From Verrucomicrobiota bacterium (lineage in GTDB: Bacteria > Verrucomicrobiota > Kiritimatiellia > Kiritimatiellales > Tichowtungiaceae), in NCBI GenBank assembly GCA_020853375.1, contig JADYZA010000226.1, forward strand, positions 1 to 15,162: 15,162 nucleotides of DNA, written 5' to 3'. Position numbers and translations under genes: made by a program. The notes under the pieces were generated by a model. It was not told the origin of the DNA. It did no database searches and was given only the letters and a program-made list of their open reading frames with translations. Shown here one piece after another: positions 1 to 13,519 of the stretch; position 1 is the stretch's first letter, and every line of letters begins with the position of its first letter.

Positions 1-6
1 AAACGC

Positions 7-36
7 TTGTCGGCGGCTGGGCGGCATGGATATATT
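7..36 (+). promoter_or_regulatory. Probable sigma70-type promoter of the tRNA-Ala gene
   Basis: A TTGTCG hexamer at 7-12 and a TATATT hexamer at 31-36 are separated by 18 bp, close to -35 and -10 consensus. Transcription would start about 43, roughly nine bases before the mature tRNA 5' end. The position directly in front of a tRNA gene supports the call. It rests on sequence match alone, and the window begins only six bases upstream, so other upstream elements cannot be judged. Confidence 0.5.
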
Positions 37-51
37 CCGAGCCTTCTTTTC

Positions 52-124
52 GGGGCGGTAGCTCAATTGGTAGAGCGCCACGTTCGCAACGTGGAGGTCG
101 AGGGTTCGATCCCCTTTCGCTCCA
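52..124 (+). tRNA. tRNA-Ala, anticodon CGC
   Basis: A complete 73-nt cloverleaf folds by eye. The acceptor stem is 52-58 with 117-123. The D stem is GCTC/GAGC at 61-64 and 73-76. The anticodon stem is CCACG/CGTGG at 78-82 and 90-94, and the T stem is 100-104 with 112-116 around a TTCGATC loop. The anticodon loop TTCGCAA puts CGC at 85-87, which reads alanine codon GCG. Base pair 3:70 is G:T (G54 with T121), the universal alanine identity determinant, and this independently confirms the amino acid. The discriminator is A124. The 3' CCA is not encoded: the next bases are CAA. The integrase gene lies just downstream, so this tRNA is the likely integration target and keeps its sequence after insertion. 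Confidence 0.97.
100..124 (+). other. Putative left attachment site (attL) in the tRNA-Ala 3' end
   Basis: Tyrosine integrases of this kind commonly recombine in the T-arm and acceptor stem at a tRNA 3' end, with the int gene adjacent, as here (int starts 153 bases past the tRNA). The core is placed on the T arm to discriminator base by analogy only. No second copy of the tRNA 3' end occurs in the window, so the partner repeat (attR) must lie beyond it, and the exact core boundaries cannot be set from one end. Confidence 0.5.
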
Positions 125-130
125 CAATCC

Positions 131-276: not shown

Positions 277-1572
277 ATGGGACTGGAACTGAGAAGAGAT
301 GCAGATCATAACCTTCGTTCGAAATGGTGGTATGGACGTTACACCGTGAACGGCAAGCGGCGATTCATCAATCTGGACGTTGAAGTGCAGGGCAAACCGC
401 CTGCCGATATTCGTCACGCAGGAAGCACCGCGTTTGAGTGTTCCCGGGCGTTGGCGCAGGCAAAACTGAATGAGCTCATTCGTGACGCAACCAGTCATAA
501 GTCCGCTGAAAAGCATTTGCAGGAACTCTATGAACTCAAAGCGGGTAAATCGATTGAACGGGTGCCGGTAGCCGATATATCCGCGCACTGGTTGTTGATT
601 CCGACCCGCCGGGAAAGATCAGCCTCATGGGAAAGAACCCAATGCTCCACGCTGAAGGATTTCAGCGACTACATCAAAAATAACCATCCTGCCGCACAGT
701 ACATTTCACAGATCACTCCGAAAATGGCTCGTGAATGGTTGCACAGCCTCGAAATCAAAAAATATGCCGCCGCCACTTACAACGACAAGCTGCACCTGCT
801 GAAAGGTTTCTTTGAGCGCATCGGCCACGAAGCCGGGGTTATTAAAAATCCCTTCTCCGGCTGTCCGACCAAAATCAAGAAAACGATGCACCGCCAGCCC
901 TTCACGCAGGACGAGCTCAACGCGATTCTAACTCATTGTGATGAGCTAACCCGTCCGGTCGTTATGACCGCCATGTGTACCGCCATGCGGCGCGGTGACT
1001 GCTCCATGCTCAAATGGGAATCCGTCGATCTGGAAAACGGATTCATTTCGGTGAAGACCTCCAAGACCGGCGAACTGGCTGAAATTCCTTTGTTTCCGCG
1101 GTTGCGGGCCGAGCTGGAACAGCTTCCCCGTGTGAGTGAATACGTGTTTCCCGAAGCGGCGGCTATGTACAAAACCAGCATCCACGGCCTGTCATGGCGA
1201 TTTAAGAAGGCGCTCAAGGCGGCTGAAATCAAAGAAACCGTAGTTGCGCGGGACGATGCCCGCCATAAGGCCAGCGTGAAGGATTTTCACTCATTGCGGA
1301 CAACGTGGATCACCATGGCTCTGTCGGCGGGTGTTCCGATGGAGCTGGTACGTCGCGTCACCGGCCATTCCACCGTTGAAGTCGTGCTGAAACACTACTT
1401 CCGTCCCGGACGCGAAGCCTTTCGCACGGCGCTCGAAACCGCCATGCCGCACATGCTCACCGGCGGCGCGACTCCGGCAAAAGCTATCCAAGCCGTTCAG
1501 GTGCGCCCAGACCTAATCCATGAACAACAGCTCAAAAAGGTCGAAGGACTGGCTGCCACCGTTGCCGCCTGA
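277..1572 (+). CDS. int: Tyrosine recombinase (phage/island-type integrase)
   Basis: This 431-residue protein catalyses site-specific integration and excision of the element at the tRNA-Ala gene. The N-terminal part (about 1-90) is basic, as in arm-binding domains. A core-binding SAM-like region covers roughly 95-195, and the catalytic domain about 205-385. Visible catalytic residues are Arg238 in AMRRGD, Lys263 in the SKTG turn, His338 and Arg341 in HSLR, His364 in TGH, and the nucleophile Tyr374 in KHYF. All expected active-site positions are present, so the enzyme looks functional. The start is supported by AAGGAG at 265-270, six bases before ATG. The alanine-rich 40-residue tail past the catalytic Tyr is unusual but not disruptive. 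The gene reads away from the tRNA and ends at its own terminator, so it is transcribed alone. The family is certain; the att specificity is inferred from position. Confidence 0.95.
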   Translation: MGLELRRDADHNLRSKWWYGRYTVNGKRRFINLDVEVQGKPPADIRHAGSTAFECSRALAQAKLNELIRDATSHKSAEKHLQELYELKAGKSIERVPVADISAHWLLIPTRRERSASWERTQCSTLKDFSDYIKNNHPAAQYISQITPKMAREWLHSLEIKKYAAATYNDKLHLLKGFFERIGHEAGVIKNPFSGCPTKIKKTMHRQPFTQDELNAILTHCDELTRPVVMTAMCTAMRRGDCSMLKWESVDLENGFISVKTSKTGELAEIPLFPRLRAELEQLPRVSEYVFPEAAAMYKTSIHGLSWRFKKALKAAEIKETVVARDDARHKASVKDFHSLRTTWITMALSAGVPMELVRRVTGHSTVEVVLKHYFRPGREAFRTALETAMPHMLTGGATPAKAIQAVQVRPDLIHEQQLKKVEGLAATVAA

Positions 1573-1658: not shown

Positions 1659-2813
1659 TCATTTGGACTGTAGTAGCCGTTGAGCGGCGCCGGTTCGGGT
1701 CAGTTCATGCAGGACTTCTTCCGTGGCGGCGTGATATTTTTTGAGAAGCCGGACAAAGGTTTTGAATCCTGGTGCGCCGATGCGCACTAACTCCTGACGA
1801 TCAGACTTAATTTCAGCGAAGTCCGGCGTCCATTTCACGCCATTTTGAAGAAGCAACTCGAACATTCCATCACTGAAACAAGCGCTTTCTGCACTGCGGT
1901 AGGAGTAGTCGTTTTTACCGTGTCTAATCTCCTGCATCAGCAGATGACTGAACAGAAAACGAATGAGACTTCCAATGAGAGCGGACTTTTGATCCGTGTT
2001 CAGCCGTTTAAGAAACCCGGCGTCGATGAGAAGTTTCAGCGTTTCAGGTTTGCGTGATTCGAGCGCGGCCTCCAGAAATTTGACCGCATGATCTGCCGTC
2101 GGATTCATTTTCCCGATCTTCTCCATCATCCACGTCCACCCCTGACGCAAGGCGATTTCAACCGCGCACCGGTCATAGTAATCGATTTCCTCCACCTCCA
2201 GAATTTGCGGCCCCGGCTCAAACGGATCGGCCCCGGCCCAAAGCATCAGCGAAACCCACTTCTGACTTTGCTCTTTCGTATGAAACCGCAAGGCGATATT
2301 CAACTGCCGATTCCAATCCGGAAACCGCTCCTCGTATTCCTTATAAATTCTCAGGGCGGTCCGGATTTTATACTTAAAGGCGTACGCGATCGGATTATCG
2401 GTCTTCGTGTCGGCCCCGCGCTCGACAAAATAGCGCATAATATTCGTGTCCCAGGTGTCGAACACCCGCCACATGGGGACATCGCGAATATCAGCCCCGT
2501 GCTTCACCAGCAGCTCAACCAAATCCAGACGTCTCTGGCATACAGCATCTTCGATCGCGCAAAATCCGCCGAACCCGCCGTGTCTTGGCTCTGACGTATT
2601 GGCTCCGCCCTCCAGCAGCACTTGAACCAGACTGTGAAACCCCAACCCGACGGCAATCTCCAGCGGCCCTTGCGTCCGCTGGCGGGCCGGAACGGGCGGC
2701 GGGGGATTCACCGGCTTACCGGCGGCGATCCACTCCTGCACCTCGAAAAGCTTGCCCTGCCGGCAGAGATCGAGCAGAGGCTTCATCTCCTCTCTATTGG
2801 CGAAACGGCTCAT
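1659..2813 (-). CDS. Ankyrin-repeat protein
   Basis: This 384-residue soluble protein is built of ankyrin-like helical repeats. Clear units are PLEIAVGLGFHSLVQVLLEGGAN near residues 51-73 and AIEDAVCQRRLDLVELLVKHGAD near 86-108, with degenerate ones ending in FVERGAD, LMLWAGADP, LLIDAGF and LLLQNGV. Ankyrin repeats mediate protein-protein contacts. No enzymatic domain, signal peptide or membrane segment is visible, so the partner and process are unknown. It is the only minus-strand gene in the window, convergent with int and divergent from the hsd operon, and thus probably has its own promoter in 2814-2967. No Shine-Dalgarno is seen before the ATG at 2813. An upstream ATG at 2818 hits a stop at once. 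It could be an accessory defence, anti-defence or host-interaction gene; its place as island cargo does not decide between these. Confidence 0.85.
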   Translation of the reverse strand: MSRFANREEMKPLLDLCRQGKLFEVQEWIAAGKPVNPPPPVPARQRTQGPLEIAVGLGFHSLVQVLLEGGANTSEPRHGGFGGFCAIEDAVCQRRLDLVELLVKHGADIRDVPMWRVFDTWDTNIMRYFVERGADTKTDNPIAYAFKYKIRTALRIYKEYEERFPDWNRQLNIALRFHTKEQSQKWVSLMLWAGADPFEPGPQILEVEEIDYYDRCAVEIALRQGWTWMMEKIGKMNPTADHAVKFLEAALESRKPETLKLLIDAGFLKRLNTDQKSALIGSLIRFLFSHLLMQEIRHGKNDYSYRSAESACFSDGMFELLLQNGVKWTPDFAEIKSDRQELVRIGAPGFKTFVRLLKKYHAATEEVLHELTRTGAAQRLLQSK

Positions 2814-2967: not shown

Positions 2968-5094
2968 ATGGCTATGGAAACGCATTCTCAAATGGCCAAT
3001 TTCATCTGGGGAATCTGCAATCTGCTTCGGGGGCCATACAAGCGGAATGAATATCGCAAGGTCATCCTACCGCTAACGGTGTTGAGACGCTTTGACTGCA
3101 TCCTCGCTCCGACTAAGGCCGCCGTGCTGAAAGAGCACGCCGCCATCAAGGCCAAGCCGGAAAACATCATACGGCACAAACTTTCAGAGATCACCGAGCA
3201 TCCGTTCTATAACCTGTCCAAGCTCGACTTCGCCCGGCTGCTGGATGACCCGAACCAGCTCGCGCCGAACCTCAACAGCTACATCAACGGGTTTTCCCCT
3301 AACGTCCGCGCCATTATGGAGCGGTTCGACTTCGGCACGCAGATCGCCAAGATGGCCGATAAAGACCTGCTCTACCTCGTCATCAAGAAGTTTGCCGCCA
3401 TTGATTTGTCACCGGAGCACGTCGATCCCCTGCAAATGGGGTACATTTTTGAGGAACTCATCCGGATCGGTGCGGAACAATCCAACGAAGAGGCCGGAGA
3501 GCATTTCACTCCGCGCGAAGTGATCAAACTGATGGTCAATCTGCTACTTGCCCCCGAAAAAGACCTTGCTCGCAGCCATGTGGTGAAAACCATCTATGAT
3601 CCGGCCTGTGGAACCGGCGGGATGCTGTCCGTTGCCGAGAAATACATTCGCGATCTCAACACCGACGCCCAGCCCAAGCTCTTCGGTCAGGACTGGAACG
3701 ACGAAGCGTGGGCCGTCTGCAAATCCGACATGCTTATCAAAGGCGAAGACGCAGACAACATCATCCGCGACGACACCTTCACCAAAGACGGCTTCGCTTC
3801 CGGCAACGCCGAAGACCGTCCTTCCAAATTCGACTACATGCTCGCCAATCCGCCCTTTGGCGTGGAATGGAAACAGCAGCAACGCTACATCGAACAGGAG
3901 CGCGACACCCTTGGATTCAGCGGGCGCTTTGGCGCAGGCACGCCCCGTGTGAATGACGGCGCACTCCTTTTCCTCCAGCACATGCTGTCGAAAATGCGCG
4001 CCCCGCAGGACGGCGGCAGCCGCCTCGCCATCGTCTTTAACGGCTCACCGCTATTCACCGGCGATGCTGGCGGCGGCGAAAGCGAAATCCGCCGCTGGAT
4101 CATCGAGAACGACTGGCTGGAAGCGATTGCCGCTTTGCCCGAACAGCTTTTCTACAACACCGGCATTTCCACCTATCTCTGGGTGCTCACCAACCGCAAA
4201 GAAAAACCCCGTAAAGGCAAGGTACAGCTCATTGATGCCCGCCCGTTCTGGGTGCAGATGGAAAAAAGCCTCGGCAACAAACGCCGCCGTATCGGCGACC
4301 CTTCCGACAAAGAGAAAGACCCCGACCATATCGGCGATCTCACCAAAATCTTCGGTAACTTCAAAGACGGCGAAACCCGAACCTTTACCGAAGAAGACCC
4401 CATCACTCACCAACCTATTCAGCGCCAGCGCATCGTCAGCAAGATTTTCGACAACGAAGACTTCGGTTATAACAAGATCACCGTTGACCGCCCGTTGCGG
4501 CTGAACTTTCAGGCCAGCGCCGAGCGCATTGTCCTGCTCGACGACGAAAGCGGATTCAAAAACCTCGCTTCCAGTGCGAAGAAAGACCCCGCCGTCCGCC
4601 AGCAGGAAATCGAAGAAGGCCAAAAGCGGCAGGAAGAAATCCGCGAACTGCTCCGCGCCTTCGGCAAAGCCACCAAAGAAAAACTGTTCAAGGATCGGAA
4701 GGCATTTCTCACCGAACTGCGCAAACTCGACCGCGAGCGCGACGCACACCTGAGCGCCCCGGAACTCAAAGCCGTGCTGTCCGCCATCGGCGAGCGCGAC
4801 GAAACCGCCGAAATCTGCCGCAACAAAGACGGACAGCCCGAAGCGGACTCCGATCTGCGCGACACCGAAACCGTGCCGCTCAAGGAAAGCATCGAAGAAT
4901 ACTTCAAGCGCGAAGTGCTGCCCCATGTGCCTGATGCGTGGATTGATACAACCAAAACCAAGGTTGGCTACGAAATCCCGCTCAACCGCCACTTCTACCG
5001 CTACGAACCGCCGCGCCCGCTGGAAATCATCGAGACCGACATCAAACGCCTCGAAGACGACATCATGAAAATGCTCAAGGAGGTCACGGCATGA
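2968..5094 (+). CDS. hsdM: Type I restriction-modification DNA methyltransferase subunit HsdM
   Basis: HsdM transfers methyl from S-adenosylmethionine to N6 of adenine in the bipartite target chosen by HsdS, protecting host DNA and forming the core of the restriction complex. An N-terminal HsdM helical domain covers about 5-140. The methyltransferase fold follows, with SAM-binding motif DPACGTGG at 211-218 and catalytic motif NPPF at 294-297, both intact. At 708 residues it is longer than classical ~500-residue enzymes. The extra C-terminal part (from about 520) is charged and helical, with probable coiled coil around 530-600, as in the long HsdM subfamily. The start is chosen for the Shine-Dalgarno at 2954-2962; a second in-frame ATG lies two codons later. 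It is the first gene of the defence operon, and its stop overlaps the next start as ATGA. Confidence 0.96.
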   Translation: MAMETHSQMANFIWGICNLLRGPYKRNEYRKVILPLTVLRRFDCILAPTKAAVLKEHAAIKAKPENIIRHKLSEITEHPFYNLSKLDFARLLDDPNQLAPNLNSYINGFSPNVRAIMERFDFGTQIAKMADKDLLYLVIKKFAAIDLSPEHVDPLQMGYIFEELIRIGAEQSNEEAGEHFTPREVIKLMVNLLLAPEKDLARSHVVKTIYDPACGTGGMLSVAEKYIRDLNTDAQPKLFGQDWNDEAWAVCKSDMLIKGEDADNIIRDDTFTKDGFASGNAEDRPSKFDYMLANPPFGVEWKQQQRYIEQERDTLGFSGRFGAGTPRVNDGALLFLQHMLSKMRAPQDGGSRLAIVFNGSPLFTGDAGGGESEIRRWIIENDWLEAIAALPEQLFYNTGISTYLWVLTNRKEKPRKGKVQLIDARPFWVQMEKSLGNKRRRIGDPSDKEKDPDHIGDLTKIFGNFKDGETRTFTEEDPITHQPIQRQRIVSKIFDNEDFGYNKITVDRPLRLNFQASAERIVLLDDESGFKNLASSAKKDPAVRQQEIEEGQKRQEEIRELLRAFGKATKEKLFKDRKAFLTELRKLDRERDAHLSAPELKAVLSAIGERDETAEICRNKDGQPEADSDLRDTETVPLKESIEEYFKREVLPHVPDAWIDTTKTKVGYEIPLNRHFYRYEPPRPLEIIETDIKRLEDDIMKMLKEVTA

Positions 5095-6125
5095 GTGCTG
5101 GAAAACAACCGGAAAATGGATCGCTGATTGTTTACCGTACCGACGACGGGCAAACGGAGATTCAGCTCAAGACGGCGGACGGCTCCGCATGGCTTAATCA
5201 GAGCGAAATGGCGGAACTTTTTGACACGACCAAACAGAACATAAGTCTCCACATTAAGAACATCTTAGACGAGGGCGAGCTCCCGGCAGAAGCAACTGTC
5301 AAGGAATCCTTGACGGTTCAACCGGAAGGAGCCCGGAAGGTTCAGCGGAAAACCTTTTTATACAACCTCTACATGATTCTGGCGGTCGGCTATCGCGTCC
5401 GTTCGCCGCGCGGCACACAGTTCCGGCAATGGGCCACCGCCCATTTGGCGGAGTATCTCGTCAAGGGCTTTGTCATGGACGACAAGCGGCTGAAAAACCC
5501 CGGCGGCTGGGACTACTTCGACGAACTGCTGGCCCGCATCCGCGACATCCGTGCCTCGGAAAAACGGTTCTATCAGAAAGTACGCGACCTCTTCGCCCTC
5601 AGCGCCGACTACCGCCCGGACGACCGCGCCGCCCAGCTCTTTTTTGCCGAAGCACAGAACAAACTGCTGTTCGCCGTCACCGGCCAGACCGCCGCCGAAC
5701 TGGTGGTGGCCCGCGCCGATCCGGAAGCCCCCAATATGGCGCTCACCAACTGGAGCGGAGCGCGCGTCCGCAAACATGATGTCATCGTGGCCAAGAACTA
5801 CCTGACCGCCGACGAAGTGGACACGCTCAACCGGCTGGTAGTCATCTTTCTGGAGCAGGCCGAACTGCGCGTCAAAGAACGCAAACAGCTCACCCTCGAC
5901 TACTGGCGGCAGAATGTGGATCGCCTGCTGGAGTTCAACGAAAAAGCCGTACTGGCTCACGCCGGAGCGGTTTCGCACGAAGCCATGCAGCGCATCGCGC
6001 AGGAACGCTACGAAACCTTCGACGAAAACCGCCGCCTTGCCGACGCCAAACAGGCCGACGCCGAAGACCTCAGCGAACTCGAGCAGATTGAAAAAGCGCT
6101 GGAAAATAAAAAGGGGACGCCGTGA
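5091..6125 (+). CDS. RhuM-family protein
   Basis: This 344-residue protein resembles the RhuM family, first named from a Salmonella pathogenicity island; the biochemical role is not established. A helix-turn-helix-like segment is visible at about 34-64 (WLNQSEMAELFDTT followed by a recognition-like helix), which suggests DNA or nucleoprotein binding. A conserved central block around 88-140 contains the FLYNLYMILAVGYRV and RGTQFRQWAT stretches typical of the family, and the C-terminal third is charged and helical. It starts inside the hsdM stop codon (ATGA at 5091-5094), with a near-perfect AAGGAGG at 5077-5083 promising strong translation, and overlaps hsdS by four bases. RhuM genes are often found with type I restriction genes, so a regulatory or accessory role is plausible but unproven. 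Confidence 0.88.
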   Translation: MSAGKQPENGSLIVYRTDDGQTEIQLKTADGSAWLNQSEMAELFDTTKQNISLHIKNILDEGELPAEATVKESLTVQPEGARKVQRKTFLYNLYMILAVGYRVRSPRGTQFRQWATAHLAEYLVKGFVMDDKRLKNPGGWDYFDELLARIRDIRASEKRFYQKVRDLFALSADYRPDDRAAQLFFAEAQNKLLFAVTGQTAAELVVARADPEAPNMALTNWSGARVRKHDVIVAKNYLTADEVDTLNRLVVIFLEQAELRVKERKQLTLDYWRQNVDRLLEFNEKAVLAHAGAVSHEAMQRIAQERYETFDENRRLADAKQADAEDLSELEQIEKALENKKGTP

Positions 6126-7450
6126 AGCTCCCGGCCTACCCGAAAACCAAACCCTCCGGCGTCGATTGGCTCGGCAACGTCCCCGAACATTGGGAGGCTC
6201 AAGGCGTAAAGTTTTGTTACTCGATTCAACTTGGGAAGATGCTTCAGCCTGAGCCTGCCAGCCCAACCGACGAAGAAACTCCTTATCTCAAATCTCAGCA
6301 CGTCCAGTGGGAACATGTGCGCATTGCCGACCTTCCAACCATGTGGACGAATAAAAAAGAACGGTGGCAGTATGCCGTGAGAGATGGCGACTTGCTCGTT
6401 TGTGAAGGTGGAGATGTGGGTCGCGCAGCGGTTGTTTACGGCGCACCAGACGGAACGATTATTCAAAATGCGCTCCATCGCGTCAGACCACAGGGTAAAA
6501 ACGAATCTGGCTTCCTCTTGTATGTTCTGGCACACGCAGCTTCGCAAGGCTGGTTCGAGATTATCTGCAATAAGTCCACCATCGCTCATTTCACTGTCGA
6601 TAAATTTGGCGCGCTGGGCGTCGCACTGCCAACGCCCGCCGAACAAAAATCCATCGCGGCGTTTCTAGATCGGGAGACGGGGCGGATTGATACGCTGGTG
6701 GCGAAGAAGCGGGAATTGATCGAGCGGCTGAAGGAAAAGCGCACCGCGCTCATCTCCCGCACCGTCACTCGCGGCCTCGATCCAAATGTCGCGCTCAAAC
6801 CCTCCGGCCTCGACTGGCTCGGCGACATCCCGAAGCATTGGGACGCGAAGCCCCTCAAGTTTATCGCTCTCGTAAAAACGGGCTTCGCATTCAGCAGCGA
6901 TGATTTCACCGACGAGGGAGTTCCGGTTCTGAGAATCGGCGACATCACACGCGACGGACGAGTCGATTTCAGCGGAGCGAAATACCTGACGGAAGATTTC
7001 CTGCGAACCCACAGAAGCGTCGTTGTTCAGCAAGGGGACATCACGATGGCAATGACCGGCGCTACGATTGGTAAAGTCGGGCGCTATTCTTTTGAAACTC
7101 CTGCGCTCCTAAATCAACGCGTCTGCATTTTTCGCCCGAGGCAGGACAACTCGAACGACTTTCTTTGGCATCTATTGAACGCAGATTTCTACATTGAACA
7201 TGTGTTGTTGAAGGCGTTCGGCGGAGCGCAGCCCAATATTTCCGACACCCAACTTCTGTCTTGTTCAGTCCCCGTGCCACCACCCAAGGAACAAGCCGCC
7301 ATCGCCGCGTATCTGGACGAGGAGACGGCGAAGCTGGACGTGCTGGCTGGCAAGGTGGAGACTGCGATTGAGCGGTTGCAGGAATACCGCACCGCCCTCA
7401 TCACCGCCGCCGTCACCGGGAAAATTGATGTTAGAAAGGCCCTTGCGTGA
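6122..7450 (+). CDS. hsdS: Type I restriction-modification specificity subunit HsdS
   Basis: HsdS gives the type I complex its sequence specificity. The 442 residues show the classic two-halves plan. Target-recognition domain 1 is at about 25-165, a conserved helical spacer at about 171-226 (starting TPAEQKSIAAFLD), target-recognition domain 2 at about 240-385, and the second conserved helix at 386-442 (starting PPPKEQAAIAAYLD). Each half begins with the same PSG(V/L)DWLG motif (11-18 and 227-234), a clear internal duplication. Both recognition domains are full length, so a bipartite target is expected, though its sequence cannot be predicted here. Start is GTG at 6122, overlapping the rhuM-like stop as GTGA, with AAGGGGA at 6111-6117. 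No second or inverted hsdS copy exists in the window, so there is no local evidence of phase variation by inversion. Confidence 0.96.
   Translation: MKLPAYPKTKPSGVDWLGNVPEHWEAQGVKFCYSIQLGKMLQPEPASPTDEETPYLKSQHVQWEHVRIADLPTMWTNKKERWQYAVRDGDLLVCEGGDVGRAAVVYGAPDGTIIQNALHRVRPQGKNESGFLLYVLAHAASQGWFEIICNKSTIAHFTVDKFGALGVALPTPAEQKSIAAFLDRETGRIDTLVAKKRELIERLKEKRTALISRTVTRGLDPNVALKPSGLDWLGDIPKHWDAKPLKFIALVKTGFAFSSDDFTDEGVPVLRIGDITRDGRVDFSGAKYLTEDFLRTHRSVVVQQGDITMAMTGATIGKVGRYSFETPALLNQRVCIFRPRQDNSNDFLWHLLNADFYIEHVLLKAFGGAQPNISDTQLLSCSVPVPPPKEQAAIAAYLDEETAKLDVLAGKVETAIERLQEYRTALITAAVTGKIDVRKALA
6149..6195 (+). repeat. First copy of a 47-bp imperfect direct repeat inside hsdS
   Basis: This stretch matches 6797-6843 at 40 of 47 positions and encodes the shared segment KPSG(V/L)DWLG...(E/K)HW at the head of each recognition half. 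The copies are 648 bp apart. Such homologous segments are where recognition domains are exchanged between hsdS genes by recombination. Confidence 0.75.
6797..6843 (+). repeat. Second copy of the 47-bp imperfect direct repeat inside hsdS
   Basis: Partner of 6149-6195, with seven mismatches. It lies at the junction between the central conserved helix and the second recognition domain. Recombination between the copies would remove recognition domain 1 and leave a half-size HsdS in frame, because 648 is divisible by three. Confidence 0.75.
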
Positions 7451-8361
7451 GCACTCCGTTCGAGATTGATAATTTCAAAAAGTATTTGGACACCGTGCGC
7501 GATGAGCTGCCAAAGGGCCGCATCTACTTCAGAGGACAGAACAAACTGGTCAGCGATAGTTATGAACTGAAGCCGTCCATCGGACGTTACAAAAAGTTGG
7601 AGTCTCTTACACCGTTTGCTCGTGAGGAAAAAGAACGCGCAGTTCTCGGCGTTTTTGCCAATCACCTGCTTGCCCATGTTCAACATCTTCCGCGTAATGA
7701 CTGGGAATCGCTTGCGATTGCTCAGCACCACGGGTTGCCCACGCGATTCATGGACTGGACAACCAATCCCCTTGTCGCACTCTATTTCGCTACACGCGAA
7801 ACAAAAACCAATGATGACAATCAGCCAATGAATAGCGCAGTTTATGTTTTGACGAGTGAGCCGACCCGGTTCAGTGAGTTGGAGCGTCCGAAAGAAGCGG
7901 TTATCAAACCGGTGCGCGACCTCATCAGTTCTATCTCCATAGCACCATCCGGCTATGAAGAGTTTGAGACCATTGAGGAAACTCTTACCAGGCGCAATTT
8001 TGAGGCCATTAACGACATTCTTGATGCTGAGTCAGAGCCGATAGAAAAAGAACCCAGTGAGCCGGTTGATCAAAAATTGATGAACAGCCCTTTTGGCATC
8101 GGCGAAAATATTATTTATGACCCTCCGCATGTTTCTCCGCGTATTCGCGCACAGGACGGAGTTCTGTTGGCGTGCCATCAGCCGACACAATCATTGGAAG
8201 AAAAGGATTACATCGAAATCGTCATCAGGCACGAAGCGCACGATGAAATACGTCGCCGCCTTGATCAATACGGTGTTTTCGACAAACAACTTTTCCCCGA
8301 CCTCGACGGAATTGCCAAGTGGCTCAAGTACAGGGTTTTTGAAATTGATGGAACTTGCTAA
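7447..8361 (+). CDS. FRG-domain protein
   Basis: This 304-residue protein carries an FRG domain, named for its conserved Phe-Arg-Gly: YFRGQ is at 27-31 and QHHGLPTR, followed by the DWT triad, at 93-105. These are the invariant parts of the family. The domain has no firmly established biochemical activity known to me. It recurs in anti-phage and mobile-element neighbourhoods, often as a suspected effector. The C-terminal half (about 140-304) is acidic and unassigned. Start is GTG at 7447, overlapping the hsdS stop as GTGA, with GAAAGG at 7434-7439. Base composition looks more A+T-rich than hsdM and hsdS, hinting at a different origin. It is followed by the only real gap (79 bp) in the operon, so it may belong functionally either to the restriction genes or to the ATPase-nuclease pair. 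Confidence 0.88.
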   Translation: MSTPFEIDNFKKYLDTVRDELPKGRIYFRGQNKLVSDSYELKPSIGRYKKLESLTPFAREEKERAVLGVFANHLLAHVQHLPRNDWESLAIAQHHGLPTRFMDWTTNPLVALYFATRETKTNDDNQPMNSAVYVLTSEPTRFSELERPKEAVIKPVRDLISSISIAPSGYEEFETIEETLTRRNFEAINDILDAESEPIEKEPSEPVDQKLMNSPFGIGENIIYDPPHVSPRIRAQDGVLLACHQPTQSLEEKDYIEIVIRHEAHDEIRRRLDQYGVFDKQLFPDLDGIAKWLKYRVFEIDGTC

Positions 8362-8440
8362 AAGCTATTCCTATTACGACGATAGTCACCGGAAAATTGA
8401 CGTGCGAAAACAATCTACTTCTGGTTGAATCGAAACCGTT

Positions 8441-9718
8441 ATGCGCATTGAAGAACTCAAAGTCTCCGGATTCCGTTGTTTCGACGATGCGACGTTTCGC
8501 TTTTCGTCGGGCGTCAATTTGATCGTGGGCGACAATGGCGCGGGCAAGACCTCGCTTCTGGATGCTTTGGCGGTGGCAGCAGGATCGTGGTTGCTGGGCA
8601 TTCGTGGTTTTGACCAGCGGCATCTCTGGGCAGAGGACGTGCGAGTGCGTCCGCAAGGCTCGAACGGCGATTTTCGTTTCGAAGAGGTGGAGCAGACGGA
8701 AATCCGAGCGCGCGGAGTCATCGATGGAGAATCTCTAAAGTGGGCGCGCACTTTGCGCGGGCGCAAGGGACGTACGACGACACGGGAGGCCAGTGGCATT
8801 CGCGAACTGGCTGAAGCGCGGGCACAATCCATCCGTAGTGGCGATGAACAGATCGTGCTGCCTTTGGTTTCGTATTACGGGACGGGCCGCTTGTGGCAAA
8901 TTCCGCGCGACATGAAGAAGGAGCTGAAGAAACGCTCCGACCTTTCGCGGTTTCAGGGCTACAAGAACAGCGTTGATCCGCGGTGCAGTCCGGTGGATTT
9001 CATGAAGTGGTTGAAGCGACATGAATGGATTGCGTTTCAGGAAGGAGCAGAGCCGCCTATTTCGACCGCTGTGAAGAAGGCGGTGTTGAACTGTCTGGAG
9101 GGGGGGCAGAAAATCTGGTTTTCCGCCAAGCAGGAGCAAGTATTGGTAGATGTGGAGGATCAGGGAGTCCACGCCTTTGAAAATTTGAGCGATGGCCAGC
9201 GCAACATGGTGGCGATGGTGGGAGACATTGCGATCAAGGCGGCGCAATTGAATCCGCAGTTTGGCGCGCAGGCCATCGAGAAGACGCCCGGCATTGTACT
9301 GATTGACGAACTGGATTTGCATCTGCACCCTCGTTGGCAACGGCGGGTAGTGTCGGATTTACAGCGCACGTTTCCCATGATTCAGTTTTTCTGCACTACG
9401 CACTCACCGCAGATCATTGGCGAGGTGCCGCGTGAATCGGTCATGTTATTGACGGCGACTGGCGCGCAACCACCAGTGGTGGCCTACGGCGCGGATTCCA
9501 ACTGGATTTTGGAGCATGTCATGGAAGCGCAGCAGCGCAGTGAAGTTTCGACAAAACTCATTCACAATGTCGAAGACGCTTTGGAGAAGGGCGATCTGGA
9601 ATCCGCCAAGTGTGAACTTCAAGAGTTGCGGAAAAAAGTCGGCAGCGAAGAAGGCGAAGTCGCCCGGTTAGAGGGAAGCATCCGTAACATGGAAGCGCTG
9701 GCGCATGAGAAGGATTGA
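8441..9718 (+). CDS. ptuA: AAA/ABC-type ATPase, PtuA-like (Septu defence)
   Basis: This 425-residue protein has the ABC-like ATPase head found in RecF/SMC and OLD relatives. Walker A GDNGAGKT is at 30-37, the signature LSDGQ at 249-253, Walker B IVLIDELD at 285-292, and the switch histidine THS at 320-322. The helical insertion between Walker A and the signature is short (about 210 residues), not a long SMC arm. The C-terminal segment (about 360-425) is charged and helical. No Toprim nuclease domain is seen, which argues against OLD/Gabija-type GajA. Pairing with the adjacent HNH gene is the Septu PtuA-PtuB arrangement: the ATPase senses or gates and the HNH partner cuts DNA. No Shine-Dalgarno is evident before ATG 8441. 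The 14-base overlap with the next gene supports coupled translation. The ATPase class is certain; the Septu assignment is strong by context but untested. Confidence 0.85.
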   Translation: MRIEELKVSGFRCFDDATFRFSSGVNLIVGDNGAGKTSLLDALAVAAGSWLLGIRGFDQRHLWAEDVRVRPQGSNGDFRFEEVEQTEIRARGVIDGESLKWARTLRGRKGRTTTREASGIRELAEARAQSIRSGDEQIVLPLVSYYGTGRLWQIPRDMKKELKKRSDLSRFQGYKNSVDPRCSPVDFMKWLKRHEWIAFQEGAEPPISTAVKKAVLNCLEGGQKIWFSAKQEQVLVDVEDQGVHAFENLSDGQRNMVAMVGDIAIKAAQLNPQFGAQAIEKTPGIVLIDELDLHLHPRWQRRVVSDLQRTFPMIQFFCTTHSPQIIGEVPRESVMLLTATGAQPPVVAYGADSNWILEHVMEAQQRSEVSTKLIHNVEDALEKGDLESAKCELQELRKKVGSEEGEVARLEGSIRNMEALAHEKD

Positions 9719-10424
9719 AAAACGCGCCGAGCCGCAGGAGTTGACGCAATGGAGGGCGGCGAATCAAGCCGACCCCGGCGGTGGCGGAATCAATTACGGG
9801 TATGCCTTGCTGAGGCAGTCATCTGCGGTGGTCAACCGACTGGTGGATTCATTGCTTGCTGAACAAGGCGGGCTGTGCGCCTACACGGGCCGGAGAATTG
9901 ACCGCGACTCAACACACGTCGAACATTTGCGTCCACAGACTCCATGGAAAGCGCACCGGGGACTGGATGTCACTTATTCAAATCTGGTGGGTTGCTGGCC
10001 GCAGCCGAACGGACCGCGCGGCCAGTATGGGGCACACCCAAAAGAGGATTGGCCCGCCCCCGGACAAGAAGCACATTTTGTTTCGCCACTGAGCAATGGT
10101 TGCGAGGCGCGTTTCATTTTCAACCAGCGCGGCGAGATTAAAACCACAGATGCTGCTGCGGCTGAAACAGTGCGAAGGCTAAAACTGGATCACCATCTTT
10201 TGACCGCGTTACGTCGAGCGGAAATTGATTCTGTGTTAGGAGCAACCAGAAACCTTCCATTGAAACGTGCTCGGAGTCGGTTGCGCTCCATCGAGGAAGC
10301 TGAAGCGACAGTGAATACGGGTGGGAACGCAATACTTGACCCATATTGTTTTGCGCTGAAGCAGGCGCTCCAAAAGCACATCCGCAGTTTGGAAATAATC
10401 GGGCAAACCAAAGCACAGCAATGA
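9705..10424 (+). CDS. ptuB: HNH endonuclease, PtuB-like (Septu defence, TIGR02646-type)
   Basis: This 239-residue HNH nuclease is the probable DNA-cutting partner of the upstream ATPase. The HNH core is visible as CAYTG at 58-62, HVEHLRPQ at 71-78 (His71, Glu73, His74), Asn93 in YSNLVGC, and a later HPK at 111-113. Where this family usually has two zinc Cys-x-x-Cys pairs, only the first cysteine of each is present (Cys58, Cys97); the second positions are Thr61 and Gln100. The start ATG lies 14 bases inside the ATPase gene, with GGAAG at 9691-9695. The stop overlaps the hsdR start as ATGA. The C-terminal part (about 150-239) is helical and basic and may bind the ATPase. In known Septu systems PtuA and PtuB form a complex that degrades DNA during infection; that function is inferred here. 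Confidence 0.85.
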   Translation: MRRIEKRAEPQELTQWRAANQADPGGGGINYGYALLRQSSAVVNRLVDSLLAEQGGLCAYTGRRIDRDSTHVEHLRPQTPWKAHRGLDVTYSNLVGCWPQPNGPRGQYGAHPKEDWPAPGQEAHFVSPLSNGCEARFIFNQRGEIKTTDAAAAETVRRLKLDHHLLTALRRAEIDSVLGATRNLPLKRARSRLRSIEEAEATVNTGGNAILDPYCFALKQALQKHIRSLEIIGQTKAQQ

Positions 10425-13400
10425 ACCAAACCAACGAACGCGCCTTTGAAACTTACGTGGAGGAAATCCTGCTGACGAAAAGCGGCTGGAAATCCGGTAG
10501 CAACGCGGAATGGGATAAGGAACGGGCGCTCTTTCCGGCGCAGGTGTTTGCCTTTATCCAGGATACCCAGCCGAAACTGTGGACCGAAATGCAGGCGCAG
10601 CACGCGGCGGGGCTGGAGCCGCTGTTGTTGACCACACTGGTGAAGGAGCTGGACGCGAAGGGTTCACTCCACGTTTTGCGGCACGGGTTCAAGTTTTACG
10701 GCAAGACCTTCCGCCTCGCCTATTTCAAACCGGCCCACGGCGCGAACTATGAGATCATTGAGCTGTTTAACAAAAACCAGCTCACCGTTACGCGGCAGGT
10801 ACCGTGTCACCCCGGCGACAACCGCACGCTGGATATGGTGTTGTCAGTGAATGGTCTGCCGGTATCCACCATCGAGCTGAAGAACCCCGGTACCGGCCAG
10901 AACTGGCGGCATGCGGTACGACAATATAAAGAAGATCGCGATCCGCGCGTCCCTTTGTTCGATTTCAAGAAGCGGGCGCTGGTTCATTTCGCCGCCGACT
11001 CCGAAGAAGTCCACATGACCACGCGGCTGTCCGGGGACAAAACGCATTTTCTGCCGTTCAATCGGGGCAGCCATCCGGGGAAGATTATCTGCGGCCAAGG
11101 CAATCCCCGTCATGACTCTGGCTATCGCACCGGTTATTTCTGGGAAGAGATTCTGCGGTTCGATAGCTTTCTCGACATTCTCGGTCATTTCATGTTCCTC
11201 GAAAAGAGAGAGGAAAAGGTGGACGACGGACGCGGCGGTTCGCGCATGGTCACTAAGGAGACGATGATTTTCCCGCGCTATCACCAGCTCGATTCCGTAC
11301 GCAAACTGGTTGGAACCTCCCGTACGGAAGGGCCGGGGCGCAATTATCTCATCCAGCACTCGGCTGGCAGCGGCAAGACCAACAGCATTTCGTGGCTCTC
11401 GCACCGGCTGGCCAGTCTACACGATGAAAAGGACGTGAAGGTTTTTGACTGTGTGGTGGTGATTACCGACCGGCAGATTCTTGACCGGCAGTTGCAGGAC
11501 GCGATTTATCAGATTGAACACGCGCAGGGCGTGGTGAAGGCGATCGATCAGGACTCGAAGCAATTGGCAGAGGCGCTGATTGACGGCACGAAAATTGTGA
11601 TCACAACGTTGCAGAAGTTCCCGTTCGTCTTGCGCGGGTTGCTGCACGCCGCCGGAGCGGAGAGCGCAGAACAGGCCACCGAGGAACAAAAAGCTGAGGC
11701 GGCCAGGTGGGAGGCGGAAATCGCCAAACGCCGTTACGCCGTGATCGTGGACGAAGCACACTCCAGCCAGTCCGGCGAAACATCGCGGGAGCTGAAGGCT
11801 ATTCTTGGCGAAACGAGCCAAGCGGAGAACGAAGAGGAAGAACCGGATTGGGAAGACCGGCTCAATCAGGTGGCGCAGTCAAGAGGCCGGCAGTCTAATC
11901 TGAGCTTCTTCGCCTTTACCGCCACGCCCAAGGGCAAGACGCTGGAGCTGTTCGGGCGCAAAGGGGAGAATGGTTTGCCGGAGGCGTTTCATCTCTACTC
12001 GATGCGTCAGGCTATTCAGGAAAATTTTATTTTGGATGTGGTGAAAAACTACACCACCTACGCCACCTATTTCCGGCTGGTGAAGTCCATTGAAGACGAC
12101 CCAAACCTGCCCAAGAAAAAAGCGGTACGGGTCTTAGCTAAATTTATGAGCCTGCATCCGCACAATATTGAGCAGAAGACCGAAGTAATGGTGGAGCATT
12201 TTCGCCAAAAGGTGATGCGCCAGCTAGGCGGTCGCGCCAAGGCGATGGTGGTCACCTCTTCACGTCTTCATGCCGTGCGCTATATGAAGGCTTTCGAGCT
12301 TTACCTTACAGAAAACGGCTACACCGACATCCGTCCGCTGGTCGCTTTCAGCGGCACAGTGAAAGACCCGAAAACCGGACTCGAATATACCGAGCCGGGG
12401 ATGAACACAGATTGCGTAACCGGAGCCCCGATCAGCGAGAAGCAATTGCCTGAGCGGTTCGCGTCATCGGATTATCAGGTTTTGCTGGTGGCCAATAAAT
12501 ACCAGACCGGCTTCGATCAGCCGTTGCTGTGTGCGATGTATGTGGACAAACGGCTCGATGGCGTGCAGGCCGTACAAACCTTGTCGCGCCTGAACCGGAA
12601 GATTCCCGGCAAGGAAAATCCGTTCGTGCTGGATTTTGTCAATAAGGCCGAGGACATCTACAAAGCCTTCAAGCCCTACTATGACGCGACGAGTTTGCAG
12701 GAGGGCTCCGACCCGCAACAGCTGGAAACGCTCAAGCATGATTTGGATACCGCTCAGGTCTATTTCTGGAGCGAGGTCGAGGCGTTTTCCCGCGTCTTCT
12801 ACAAGCCCGCCGCCCGGCAGAGCGCGCAGGATCACGCCGGTATGCAGCTTCACCTTCAACCGGCAGTGGATCGCTTCAAGGCGATTGAAGACGAGCTGAA
12901 GCGCAGTGAGTTCCGGGAAAAGCTGAAGGGCTACGTGCACATTTATTCTTTTTTGAGCCAGATTGCTCCTTACTGCGATCCATCCTTGGAGATGCTTTAC
13001 AGCTACGGTCGTTTCCTGCTTCCGCACCTTCCGCTCGACCGCGACACCGAGCGAGTGAAAATCAGCGATGAGGTCGGTCTGGAATACTATCGGTTACAGC
13101 GGATTTTCGATGGCGACATAGCTCTTGAAGAGGGCGATCCGGAGGGCGTGAAGAGCCCGACCGATGTCGGTACCGGCAAAGCCAAAGAAGACAAAGCCCC
13201 GCTGTCAGAAATCATCACCGTGCTGAATGAACGCTTCGGGACGAATTTCACCGATGAAGACCGTTTATTCTTTGAGCAGATTCGCGAAAAGGCCACCAAT
13301 AATGATCAGGTCATCAAATTGCGGCAAGCCAACCCGTTCGATAAATTCCAGCTCGGTATGCGTCAGCTTGTCGAAGGGCTCATGATGCAGCGCATGACCG

Positions 13401-13519
13401 ACAACGACAAGATCGTGACCCGTTACATGGATGATAAAGAATTCGGCAGTGCCGCCTTCGATGTGCTTTCAAAAGCCATCTACGAAGCAATTCCTGTGAA
13501 CGATGCTTCTCACGTTTGA
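10421..13519 (+). CDS. hsdR: Type I restriction enzyme, endonuclease/translocase subunit HsdR
   Basis: HsdR (1032 residues from this start) pumps DNA using ATP when the complex meets an unmethylated target, and cuts far away. The N-terminal nuclease is PD-(D/E)xK: Asp138 in TLDMV, Glu152 and Lys154 in IELK, then a QxxxY-like AVRQYKEDR at 165-173. The SF2 motor shows Walker A SAGSGKT at 314-320, DEAH at 444-447, TATPK at 500-504, and motif VI QTLSRLNR at 719-726. The C-terminal 300 residues are helical, as expected for assembly with HsdM. All catalytic residues are intact. An ATG at 10346 is in frame, but ATG 10421 is preferred because it overlaps the ptuB stop as ATGA, matches the other junctions, and begins the family-typical NERAFE. 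It is last in the operon, separated from hsdM and hsdS by three non-hsd genes. Confidence 0.96.
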   Translation: MNQTNERAFETYVEEILLTKSGWKSGSNAEWDKERALFPAQVFAFIQDTQPKLWTEMQAQHAAGLEPLLLTTLVKELDAKGSLHVLRHGFKFYGKTFRLAYFKPAHGANYEIIELFNKNQLTVTRQVPCHPGDNRTLDMVLSVNGLPVSTIELKNPGTGQNWRHAVRQYKEDRDPRVPLFDFKKRALVHFAADSEEVHMTTRLSGDKTHFLPFNRGSHPGKIICGQGNPRHDSGYRTGYFWEEILRFDSFLDILGHFMFLEKREEKVDDGRGGSRMVTKETMIFPRYHQLDSVRKLVGTSRTEGPGRNYLIQHSAGSGKTNSISWLSHRLASLHDEKDVKVFDCVVVITDRQILDRQLQDAIYQIEHAQGVVKAIDQDSKQLAEALIDGTKIVITTLQKFPFVLRGLLHAAGAESAEQATEEQKAEAARWEAEIAKRRYAVIVDEAHSSQSGETSRELKAILGETSQAENEEEEPDWEDRLNQVAQSRGRQSNLSFFAFTATPKGKTLELFGRKGENGLPEAFHLYSMRQAIQENFILDVVKNYTTYATYFRLVKSIEDDPNLPKKKAVRVLAKFMSLHPHNIEQKTEVMVEHFRQKVMRQLGGRAKAMVVTSSRLHAVRYMKAFELYLTENGYTDIRPLVAFSGTVKDPKTGLEYTEPGMNTDCVTGAPISEKQLPERFASSDYQVLLVANKYQTGFDQPLLCAMYVDKRLDGVQAVQTLSRLNRKIPGKENPFVLDFVNKAEDIYKAFKPYYDATSLQEGSDPQQLETLKHDLDTAQVYFWSEVEAFSRVFYKPAARQSAQDHAGMQLHLQPAVDRFKAIEDELKRSEFREKLKGYVHIYSFLSQIAPYCDPSLEMLYSYGRFLLPHLPLDRDTERVKISDEVGLEYYRLQRIFDGDIALEEGDPEGVKSPTDVGTGKAKEDKAPLSEIITVLNERFGTNFTDEDRLFFEQIREKATNNDQVIKLRQANPFDKFQLGMRQLVEGLMMQRMTDNDKIVTRYMDDKEFGSAAFDVLSKAIYEAIPVNDASHV

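What the first reader, a model, noticed from the sequence alone, without database searches (positions are those of the whole stretch)
2968..13519. Seven-gene compound defence operon: type I restriction system with RhuM, FRG and a Septu-like ATPase-HNH pair nested inside
The order hsdM, rhuM-like, hsdS, FRG, ptuA-like, ptuB-like, hsdR is joined by overlapping start/stop codons at hsdM/rhuM, rhuM/hsdS, hsdS/FRG, ptuA/ptuB and ptuB/hsdR. Three genes of a different character separate hsdR from its partners, yet the last of them is translationally coupled to hsdR. This suggests more than random cargo: a layered system in which modification status, restriction and an ATPase-gated nuclease are expressed at fixed ratios. 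One hypothesis is that PtuAB and FRG act as a back-up when the type I enzyme is inhibited. The gene families and coupling are seen; functional integration is inference.
Basis: partly seen in the sequence, partly recalled or inferred. Interest (0 to 1): 0.8.

Follow-up and report, generated by a model that had tools for sequence, protein, structure and literature searches.

The report
Restriction operon carrying swappable defence cargo
This is a bacterial DNA-restriction operon whose gaps between the core genes hold other antiviral genes; one of these (FRG) has evolved together with the core enzyme, while others, including a Septu-like ATPase-nuclease pair, are swapped in and out between relatives.

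Summary
The seven genes, their order and the overlapping junctions are real; only FRG/ptuA is uncoupled (79-nt gap), and hsdR probably starts at 10421. It is not a fixed seven-part machine. Of 53 relatives with hsdM and hsdR on one stretch, none has the FRG-ptuAB block, 20 have FRG, 6 have RhuM. Three Chlorobiaceae with nearly identical HsdM carry different cargo. Unrelated last cargo genes also overlap the hsdR start (11 of 49), so coupling does not show partnership.

Two things exceed random stacking. FRG, where present, lies between hsdS and hsdR (21 of 21) and its divergence follows HsdM and HsdR (r about 0.9), unlike Schlafen and Abi_2 cargo. PtuAB sits before hsdR in five further operons of a sister type I clade; all six PtuBs carry CxYT instead of CxYC, and PtuA bodies and PtuB have conflicting histories, so the pair is a mosaic.

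Best reading: a stack on a type I chassis, FRG an optional co-inherited part, PtuAB a self-contained effector. A PrrC-like guard role is possible and untested. Embedding of defence genes in type I operons is published; this is a new variant.

The parts
2968..5094 (+). hsdM, type I DNA methyltransferase subunit (708 aa)
   Evidence: Pfam N6_Mtase 1.9e-55, HsdM_N 5.5e-26; PADLOC MTase_I 1e-278; relatives up to 88% identity
5091..6125 (+). rhuM-family gene in the hsdM-hsdS gap (slot 1), ATGA overlap with hsdM
   Evidence: Pfam Virulence_RhuM 7.2e-109; PADLOC PDC-S05 6.1e-151; in 6 of 53 relatives, slot 1 or 2
6122..7450 (+). hsdS, type I specificity subunit with two target-recognition repeats, GTG start, GTGA overlap with rhuM
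   Evidence: Pfam Methylase_S 8.5e-27, 2 stretches; internal 67-nt direct repeat, spacing 648
7447..8361 (+). FRG-domain gene, first gene of the hsdS-hsdR gap (slot 2), GTGA overlap with hsdS
   Evidence: Pfam FRG 1.5e-24; PADLOC PDC-S15 2.8e-133; alignment of 21; co-inheritance
8362..8440 (.). 79-nt spacer, the only uncoupled junction in the operon
   Evidence: sequence; the sigma-70 consensus scan placed no site here
8441..9718 (+). ptuA-like ABC ATPase (425 aa)
   Evidence: PADLOC PtuA 1.1e-129; match over residues 1-417 to solved PtuA 8ee4, 1.4e-50; trees
9705..10424 (+). ptuB-like HNH nuclease (239 aa) with CAYTG in place of the usual CxYC, 14-nt overlap with ptuA
   Evidence: PADLOC PtuB 6.3e-53; NCBIfam TIGR02646 53.3 bits; alignments
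10421..13519 (+). hsdR, type I restriction/translocase subunit (1032 aa), ATGA overlap with ptuB
   Evidence: Pfam HSDR_N, SWI2_SNF2, T1R_D3-like; TIGR00348 5.6e-53, below its cut-off
52..125 (+). tRNA-Ala(CGC), probable insertion site of the island
   Evidence: ARAGORN; contig break at the tRNA
277..1572 (+). tyrosine integrase
   Evidence: Pfam Phage_integrase 1.4e-16

Best explanation
A tRNA-associated integrative island carries one defence stack built on a type I restriction-modification chassis. HsdM2S methylates host DNA and HsdR joins it to translocate on and cut unmodified DNA (established for the family). FRG is an optional but co-inherited fourth part of this HsdM/HsdR clade; it probably acts as a restriction-linked effector, possibly as an NAD-using ART-type enzyme (literature prediction only). 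RhuM and PtuAB are exchangeable modules in two gene slots. PtuAB is probably a self-contained ATP-gated HNH nuclease that stops infected cells by cutting tRNA or DNA; it shares the operon, and at its end the translation, of the restriction genes. Shown here: the families, slots, recurrence, co-inheritance of FRG and mosaic origin of PtuAB. Inferred: the island as an integrated element, co-transcription, activity and independence of PtuAB.
For: Order and overlaps. Cargo turnover: of 53 relatives FRG is in 20, RhuM in 6, PtuAB in 0; 2 of 54 operons (window included) have no gene of 100 aa or more in either slot. Three Chlorobiaceae (L059, L060, L066), with end branches of 0.0085-0.025 in the HsdM tree, hold FRG+RhuM, a YhcG-cluster gene+RhuM, and a 189-aa gene. 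FRG: slot 2 in 21 of 21, distances follow HsdM r 0.875 and HsdR r 0.911 (n 20, L011 left out for a frame problem), against Schlafen 0.10/0.27 and Abi_2 0.16/0.11. Families keep to one slot (69 of 77 genes vs 51 in shuffles, reached in 0 of 10000). PtuAB elsewhere with no hsd gene found nearby. PtuA/PtuB tree conflict. A Septu PtuAB cloned alone protects E. coli (PMC13096335, passages read).
Against: PtuAB lies before hsdR in six operons of this Hsd superfamily and their PtuBs share CxYT; the five in the tree group together (91/71). That is more regular than free shuffling of one pair would suggest. FRG is clade-limited: in 40 genomes of the window's phylum that have an HsdR of the wider superfamily only one remote FRG match was found, not on an HsdR contig. 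RhuM and YhcG distances also follow the core (r 0.81-0.91), though on 5 and 4 rows. No expression or activity data exist for this operon.
Confidence: 0.6

Rival explanations
1. Guard (PrrC-like): PtuAB is held latent by, or senses, the HsdMSR complex and is released when a phage anti-restriction protein blocks the type I enzyme, so it is a true second line of the same system.
For: PrrC, an ABC-ATPase tRNA nuclease embedded in the EcoprrI operon, works in this way (PMC3874165 and PMC2610378, passages read). Retron-Eco7 PtuAB and Septu EcB88 cut tRNA-Tyr (PMC11555353 and PMC13096335, passages read). ptuAB lies before hsdR in six operons of this superfamily, directly in four of them (window, L108, L154, L173), with two or three genes between in L117 and L131; other ABC-ATPase genes sit near the end of slot 2 in L009, L015, L023 and L043. 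The PtuB subtype, rather than PtuA, tracks the embedding.
Against: CxYT PtuBs also occur with no hsd gene found (8 of 41 others), including CxYTG in L115 and L175. PtuAB is also embedded in an unlike type I operon with CxYC (L129) and in Hma. Coupling to hsdR is not specific. PtuA bodies were evidently exchanged, which does not favour a finely fitted ATPase contact.
Confidence: 0.25
2. One obligate seven-part machine with fixed subunit ratios.
For: Five translational overlaps in one operon.
Against: The exact order was seen nowhere else: 0 of 53 complete relatives, and none among 20 further HsdR stretches of the phylum, three of which are contigs already sampled and several of which stop short of hsdM.
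Confidence: 0.03
3. Cargo without selected function: recent insertions that happen to be tolerated between hsd genes.
For: 79-nt uncoupled gap before ptuA; ptuAB absent from all 53 close operons.
Against: Intact reading frames and conserved catalytic residues; recurrence of ptuAB before hsdR in other lineages; strong slot preference of cargo families.
Confidence: 0.07

Closest known systems
EcoprrI-PrrC (type Ic R-M with embedded anticodon nuclease)
   Same: ABC-ATPase-controlled nuclease gene embedded in an hsd operon; proposed second line of defence
   Different: PrrC is one protein with its own nuclease domain; here two proteins, ATPase PtuA and HNH PtuB, plus FRG and RhuM; no evidence yet of control by the type I enzyme
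RRDM island of enteropathogenic E. coli (RptR, DarTG2 inside type I R-M)
   Same: Seven-ORF type I operon with a defence pair between hsdS and hsdR (PMC12255303)
   Different: Different cargo; no small first gene like rptR among the seven genes here (not searched by profile)
Septu type I (PtuA-PtuB)
   Same: PtuA match to 8ee4 over nearly its whole length, PtuA and PtuB profile matches
   Different: PtuB has CxYT and lacks the second cysteine pair; PtuA body and PtuB have conflicting histories
Septu embedded in Hma
   Same: ptuAB nested between genes of a helicase-methylase system (L111, L122, L128); the association is published (PMC8565338 passages; PMC12255303 introduction)
   Different: Other chassis; the L111 and L122 PtuBs are CxYC (L128 unreadable)
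PADLOC guilt-by-embedding candidates PDC-S05 (RhuM) and PDC-S15 (FRG)
   Same: Best profiles for both genes; PDC candidates were found by embedding (PMC10855318 and PMC12988326, passages)
   Different: Those are single-gene candidates; here FRG is shown to be co-inherited with one HsdM/HsdR clade
C. jejuni hsd loci with rlo genes
   Same: Restriction-linked ORFs inside type I loci (Miller et al. 2005 as cited in PMC2610378)
   Different: Different gene families for the most part; the original paper was not looked up

Membership tests
Type I restriction-modification system | hsdM, hsdS and hsdR in one operon with intact frames and core motifs | tested here: met
Type I restriction-modification system | ATP-dependent restriction and site-specific methylation | not testable with these tools
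   no experiment or methylome
Septu (type I) | adjacent ptuA and ptuB matching Septu profiles | tested here: met
   PtuA. NCBIfam equivalogs NF041760/NF041761 (retron-type) are below their cut-offs
Septu (type I) | cysteine pairs (CxYC and CxxC) usual in PtuB | tested here: not met
   CAYTG and no CxxC. 8 of 41 other PtuBs compared also have CxYT, so I treat this as the mark of a subtype; that the pairs define Septu is my assumption
Septu (type I) | anti-phage activity of the pair | not testable with these tools
   none for this pair
Retron type I-A (PtuAB with reverse transcriptase) | reverse transcriptase gene next to ptuAB | tested here: not met
   neighbours are FRG and hsdR
PrrC-type restriction-guarding nuclease | ABC ATPase-nuclease gene inside a type I operon | tested here: met
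   as a two-gene pair
PrrC-type restriction-guarding nuclease | homology to PrrC with the R-E-H nuclease domain | not tested
   no PrrC profile among the 25 of 152 matches shown for PtuA or the 22 for PtuB; no direct comparison made
PrrC-type restriction-guarding nuclease | silenced by the R-M enzyme and released by an anti-restriction factor | not testable with these tools
   needs experiment
FRG as ART-superfamily enzyme | ART fold | tested here: inconclusive
   AlphaFold2 mean pLDDT 59, no PDB match with E <= 0.001

The most novel reading that the evidence does not exclude
PtuAB with a CxYT PtuB is a two-protein counterpart of PrrC: a nuclease module (PtuB plus the C-terminal tail of PtuA) that has stayed linked to the hsdS-hsdR gap of one type I superfamily while the ATPase body was exchanged, and that is unleashed when the type I enzyme is inhibited; FRG is a fourth part of the window's clade that takes part in the same response.
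Probability: 0.2. Interest if true: 0.8.

Novelty: new variant of a known kind. Interest (0 to 1): 0.5.

Why it matters
It gives type I operons a describable layout: two cargo slots, families that keep to one slot, and one cargo gene (FRG) that has evolved with the core. That singles out FRG as the first gene to test for a real functional link to restriction. The PtuAB mosaic shows which part of a Septu pair stays with the restriction operon and offers a direct test of whether the PrrC guard principle has been reinvented with an unrelated nuclease.

Tried and rejected
Rejected: L009 as a PtuAB example; a sequence match suggested it, but PADLOC places the pair in HEC-01. Rejected: coupling to hsdR as evidence of partnership. 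Rejected: CxYT as a strict mark of embedding, after L112, L115, L155, L174, L175, L177, L182, L184 without hsd genes found and L129 embedded with CxYC. The first Mantel run gave a low FRG-HsdM value (0.18) because the hsdM stretch of L011 changes frame; it was left out later. FRG fold: model too weak, no PDB match. PtuB model from one sequence was poor and was not searched. Viral contigs: 7 HsdM relatives, no PtuA relative. The sigma-70 scan found fewer sites (4) than shuffles (7.4).

Dropped before counts: 27 of the 80 HsdM loci (26 without a usable hsdR on the stretch, and L003 with a fragment only); among them L052 has FRG and L002, L016, L031, L036 have RhuM. 437 relatives were found but the tool kept 80. 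Insert genes were called by my own script, which favours the operon strand (minus ORFs were down-weighted and needed 300 nt), so the 111 to 3 strand count is biased; 30 insert genes were sent to Pfam and 10 to PADLOC, not all of them. 'PtuAB in 0 of 53' rests on blastp of the inserts against the window's proteins at 1e-4; the ATPases of L015 and L043 were checked by Pfam only. Seven PtuB loci without a readable motif (L109, L119, L123, L125, L128, L156, L165) were left out of the motif count. Of 26 PtuA places in the phylum 20 were fetched, plus the window. 'Without hsd genes' means none found by tblastn with the query sets; L129 shows that more distant hsd genes were missed at first. L123, L156 and L165 were left out of the tail and body trees, and eight further rows out of the body tree for long branches. 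L173 was found after the trees and is in none. Groups put to the AU tests were named after seeing the trees, so those p-values are too favourable. Shuffle and Mantel tests do not allow for shared ancestry of the rows.
Full report
WHAT IS THERE. The window is one whole contig (C228) of a 1.55-Mb draft genome. It begins with tRNA-Ala(CGC) at 52-125 and a tyrosine integrase, then an ankyrin-repeat gene on the minus strand, then the operon hsdM-rhuM-hsdS-FRG-ptuA-ptuB-hsdR at 2968-13519. Five of the six junctions overlap, four by 4 nt and ptuA/ptuB by 14 nt; FRG/ptuA has a 79-nt gap. The ATG at 10421 is the likely hsdR start. All seven frames are intact.

RELATIVES OF THE OPERON. A pattern-seeded scan of one genome per species (84,980, from the tool's description) with HsdM found 437 relatives, of which the best 80 (66-88% identity) were kept. 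53 of the 80 have hsdM and hsdR on the same stretch. I listed ORFs of at least 60 aa in the hsdM-hsdS gap (slot 1) and the hsdS-hsdR gap (slot 2). FRG is in 20 of 53, RhuM in 6 of 53, PtuAB in 0 of 53. The exact window order is in none. Other cargo, by Pfam or PADLOC on chosen representatives: Schlafen AlbA_2, Abi_2, YhcG/DUF1016 (PDC-S02), PDC-S18, PDC-M32A, Fic, a TIR protein, a caspase-like protein, HipA, a deaminase, M78 peptidase with DUF4411.

CARGO IS SWAPPED. L059, L060 and L066 (Chlorobiaceae) are neighbours in the HsdM tree with end branches of 0.0085-0.025, yet hold FRG+RhuM, a YhcG-cluster gene+RhuM, and a 189-aa gene. Across 49 operons with a measurable junction, the last slot-2 gene overlaps the hsdR start in 11 and lies within 30 nt of it in 38, whatever its family: RhuM, a RloB-like gene, DUF4411, HipA, FRG, Schlafen and unknowns. 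The window's ptuB/hsdR overlap is therefore nothing unusual for this gap.

SLOTS AND FRG. Families keep to one slot: 69 of 77 genes in 12 families sit in the family's preferred slot, against a mean of 51 in shuffles, reached in 0 of 10000 (rows are related, so this is not a strict probability). FRG is in slot 2 in 21 of 21 operons (window included), first after hsdS in 18, overlapping hsdS in 15 and directly before hsdR in 16. FRG distances follow HsdM (r 0.875) and HsdR (r 0.911), near the HsdM-HsdR value of 0.95; each was reached in none of 5000 permutations (n 20). Schlafen (0.10, 0.27; n 9) and Abi_2 (0.16, 0.11; n 6) do not follow; RhuM (0.81, 0.82; n 5) and YhcG (0.91, 0.84; n 4) do, on very few rows. 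On the HsdM tree FRG presence needs 13 changes (shuffled mean 17.1, as low in 9 of 500; this tree includes two frame-shifted rows), so FRG is often lost or gained. Against generality: in 40 genomes chosen by HsdR score from the 64 of 387 in the window's phylum that encode an HsdR of the wider superfamily, only one remote FRG match was found, on a contig without such an HsdR. Of 20 of these HsdR loci that I fetched, 10 have an HsdR at least 62% identical to the window's; on none of the 20 stretches was FRG or PtuAB found, and five have RhuM.

PTUAB ELSEWHERE. In a sample of 387 genomes of the phylum, 18 have a PtuA at E 1e-30 or better, 26 places. Of the 21 places looked at (20 fetched plus the window), four are embedded in type I operons: the window, L117, L131 and L129; two (L122, L128) are embedded in Hma. 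A plasmid search brought a Ketogulonicigenium vulgare operon hsdM-hsdS-ptuA-ptuB-hsdR (L108) with the same 14-nt ptuA/ptuB overlap. The phylum of L033's genome (Pseudomonadota by its title; 398 genomes) and the class of G564 (385 genomes) added L154 and L173; the phylum of L074's genome (Bacteroidota by its title; 395 genomes) gave 12 PtuB places, in none of which were hsd genes found. ptuAB stands directly before hsdR in the window, L108, L154 and L173; two genes lie between in L117 and three in L131, whose contig begins just before ptuA so that hsdS is not seen. HsdM of L108 and L117 is about 45% and HsdR of L108, L117 and L131 about 50% identical to the window's; L154 and L173 score like L108: a sister clade. 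L129 is another type I family, with order hsdR-ptuA-ptuB-hsdM-hsdS.

A PTUB SUBTYPE. The six PtuBs of this superfamily carry CxYTG where most PtuBs have CxYC; those aligned (L173 not) also lack the second cysteine pair, which suggests that the zinc site (recalled role) is gone, while H-x-E-H and the asparagine remain. Of the 41 other readable PtuBs, 33 have CxYC and 8 CxYT. By my own arithmetic 6 of 6 against 8 of 41 has a hypergeometric probability of 3e-4, but the rows are related and three of the searches were seeded with this subtype.

A MOSAIC. The PtuB tree puts the five embedded PtuBs then known on one branch (91/71), with window+L108+L154 at 99/95 and L117+L131 at 100/99. PtuA does not follow: holding the five embedded PtuAs together is rejected (AU p 8e-9). 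PtuA bodies (residues 1-349) of the window and L117 fall on one side of a fully supported branch (100/100) and those of L108, L154 and L131 on the other, each side with CxYC-partnered PtuAs; holding the body of the window with L108+L154, or L117 with L131, is rejected (p 4e-5, 1e-25). In PtuB the reverse groupings are rejected (window+L117+L115 p 3e-4; L108+L154+L131 p 0.03). All four combinations of body type and PtuB type occur. The last 76 residues of PtuA side with PtuB (window+L108+L154 96/84; L117+L131 92/86), and window-tail identity changes sides near residue 360. This tail signal is weak: placing the window tail with L115 is not rejected (p 0.505). The firm result is the conflict between body and PtuB.

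MECHANISM. The type I chassis is standard. FRG has been placed in the ART superfamily as a possible NADase effector (PMC9503650, passages read); my model could not test this. PtuAB of retron-Eco7 and of one E. coli Septu cuts tRNA-Tyr on infection and hinders phage growth; another Septu was reported to cut DNA (PMC11555353, PMC13096335, passages read). PrrC, an ABC-ATPase tRNA nuclease embedded in a type I operon, is held by the enzyme and released by phage Stp (PMC2610378, PMC3874165, passages read). The window's PtuAB could work in this way, but free-standing PtuAB is functional elsewhere, so independence is the simpler view.

LITERATURE AND NOVELTY. Embedded defence genes in type I operons are known: PrrC, rlo genes, DarTG2 between hsdS and hsdR (PMC12255303: abstract, introduction and discussion read), and PADLOC candidates found by embedding (PMC10855318, PMC12988326 passages); Septu goes with Hma (PMC8565338 passages). 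Payne et al. 2024, the preprint behind those candidates, was not seen (the library holds no preprints). Searches for Septu or PtuAB with type I operons and for FRG with restriction or hsd genes listed no paper whose title or opening lines describe this arrangement; most of the listed papers were not opened, and the library holds open-licence papers only. I rate it a new variant of a known kind.

Noticed in passing
window 1-127: The first 127 nt, up to just past the tRNA-Ala 3' end, are identical to the end of contig C107 of the same genome: an assembly break at the tRNA, as expected if the island is present in only part of the population or the tRNA end is repeated.
   Followed up: partly
window 1659-2813 (-): Ankyrin-repeat protein of 384 aa between integrase and operon, divergent from hsdM.
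   Followed up: no
window 13821-15161 (+): ORF running off the contig end, no match at 1e-3 in Pfam, PADLOC or NCBIfam.
   Followed up: no
L129 6566-16237: ptuAB between an EcoEI-type hsdR and hsdM-hsdS, followed by a gene with a weak AAA_21 match; PtuB is CxYC.
   Followed up: partly
L112 7031-9852: Bacteroides plasmid with rhuM next to ptuA-ptuB and no hsd genes found; PtuB CGYT.
   Followed up: no
L009, L015, L023, L043 slot 2: Other ABC-ATPase genes near the end of slot 2: HEC-01A/B, AAA_21 with a weak RloB match, AAA_21 with an unknown 188-aa protein, and a single 610-aa AAA_21 protein.
   Followed up: partly
L007 and L012 slot 2: FRG together with genes shared by both operons, among them a caspase-like one (L007 13533-14243).
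   Followed up: no
L123 6453-7661: PtuA (45% identical to the window's over 369 columns) with no PtuB found, divergent from what look like type III-style restriction and methylase genes (my reading of the translations).
   Followed up: no
L139 and L140: Viral contigs with hsdM and hsdS followed by a 333-aa protein matching only the start of PtuA; no hsdR found on the stretch.
   Followed up: no
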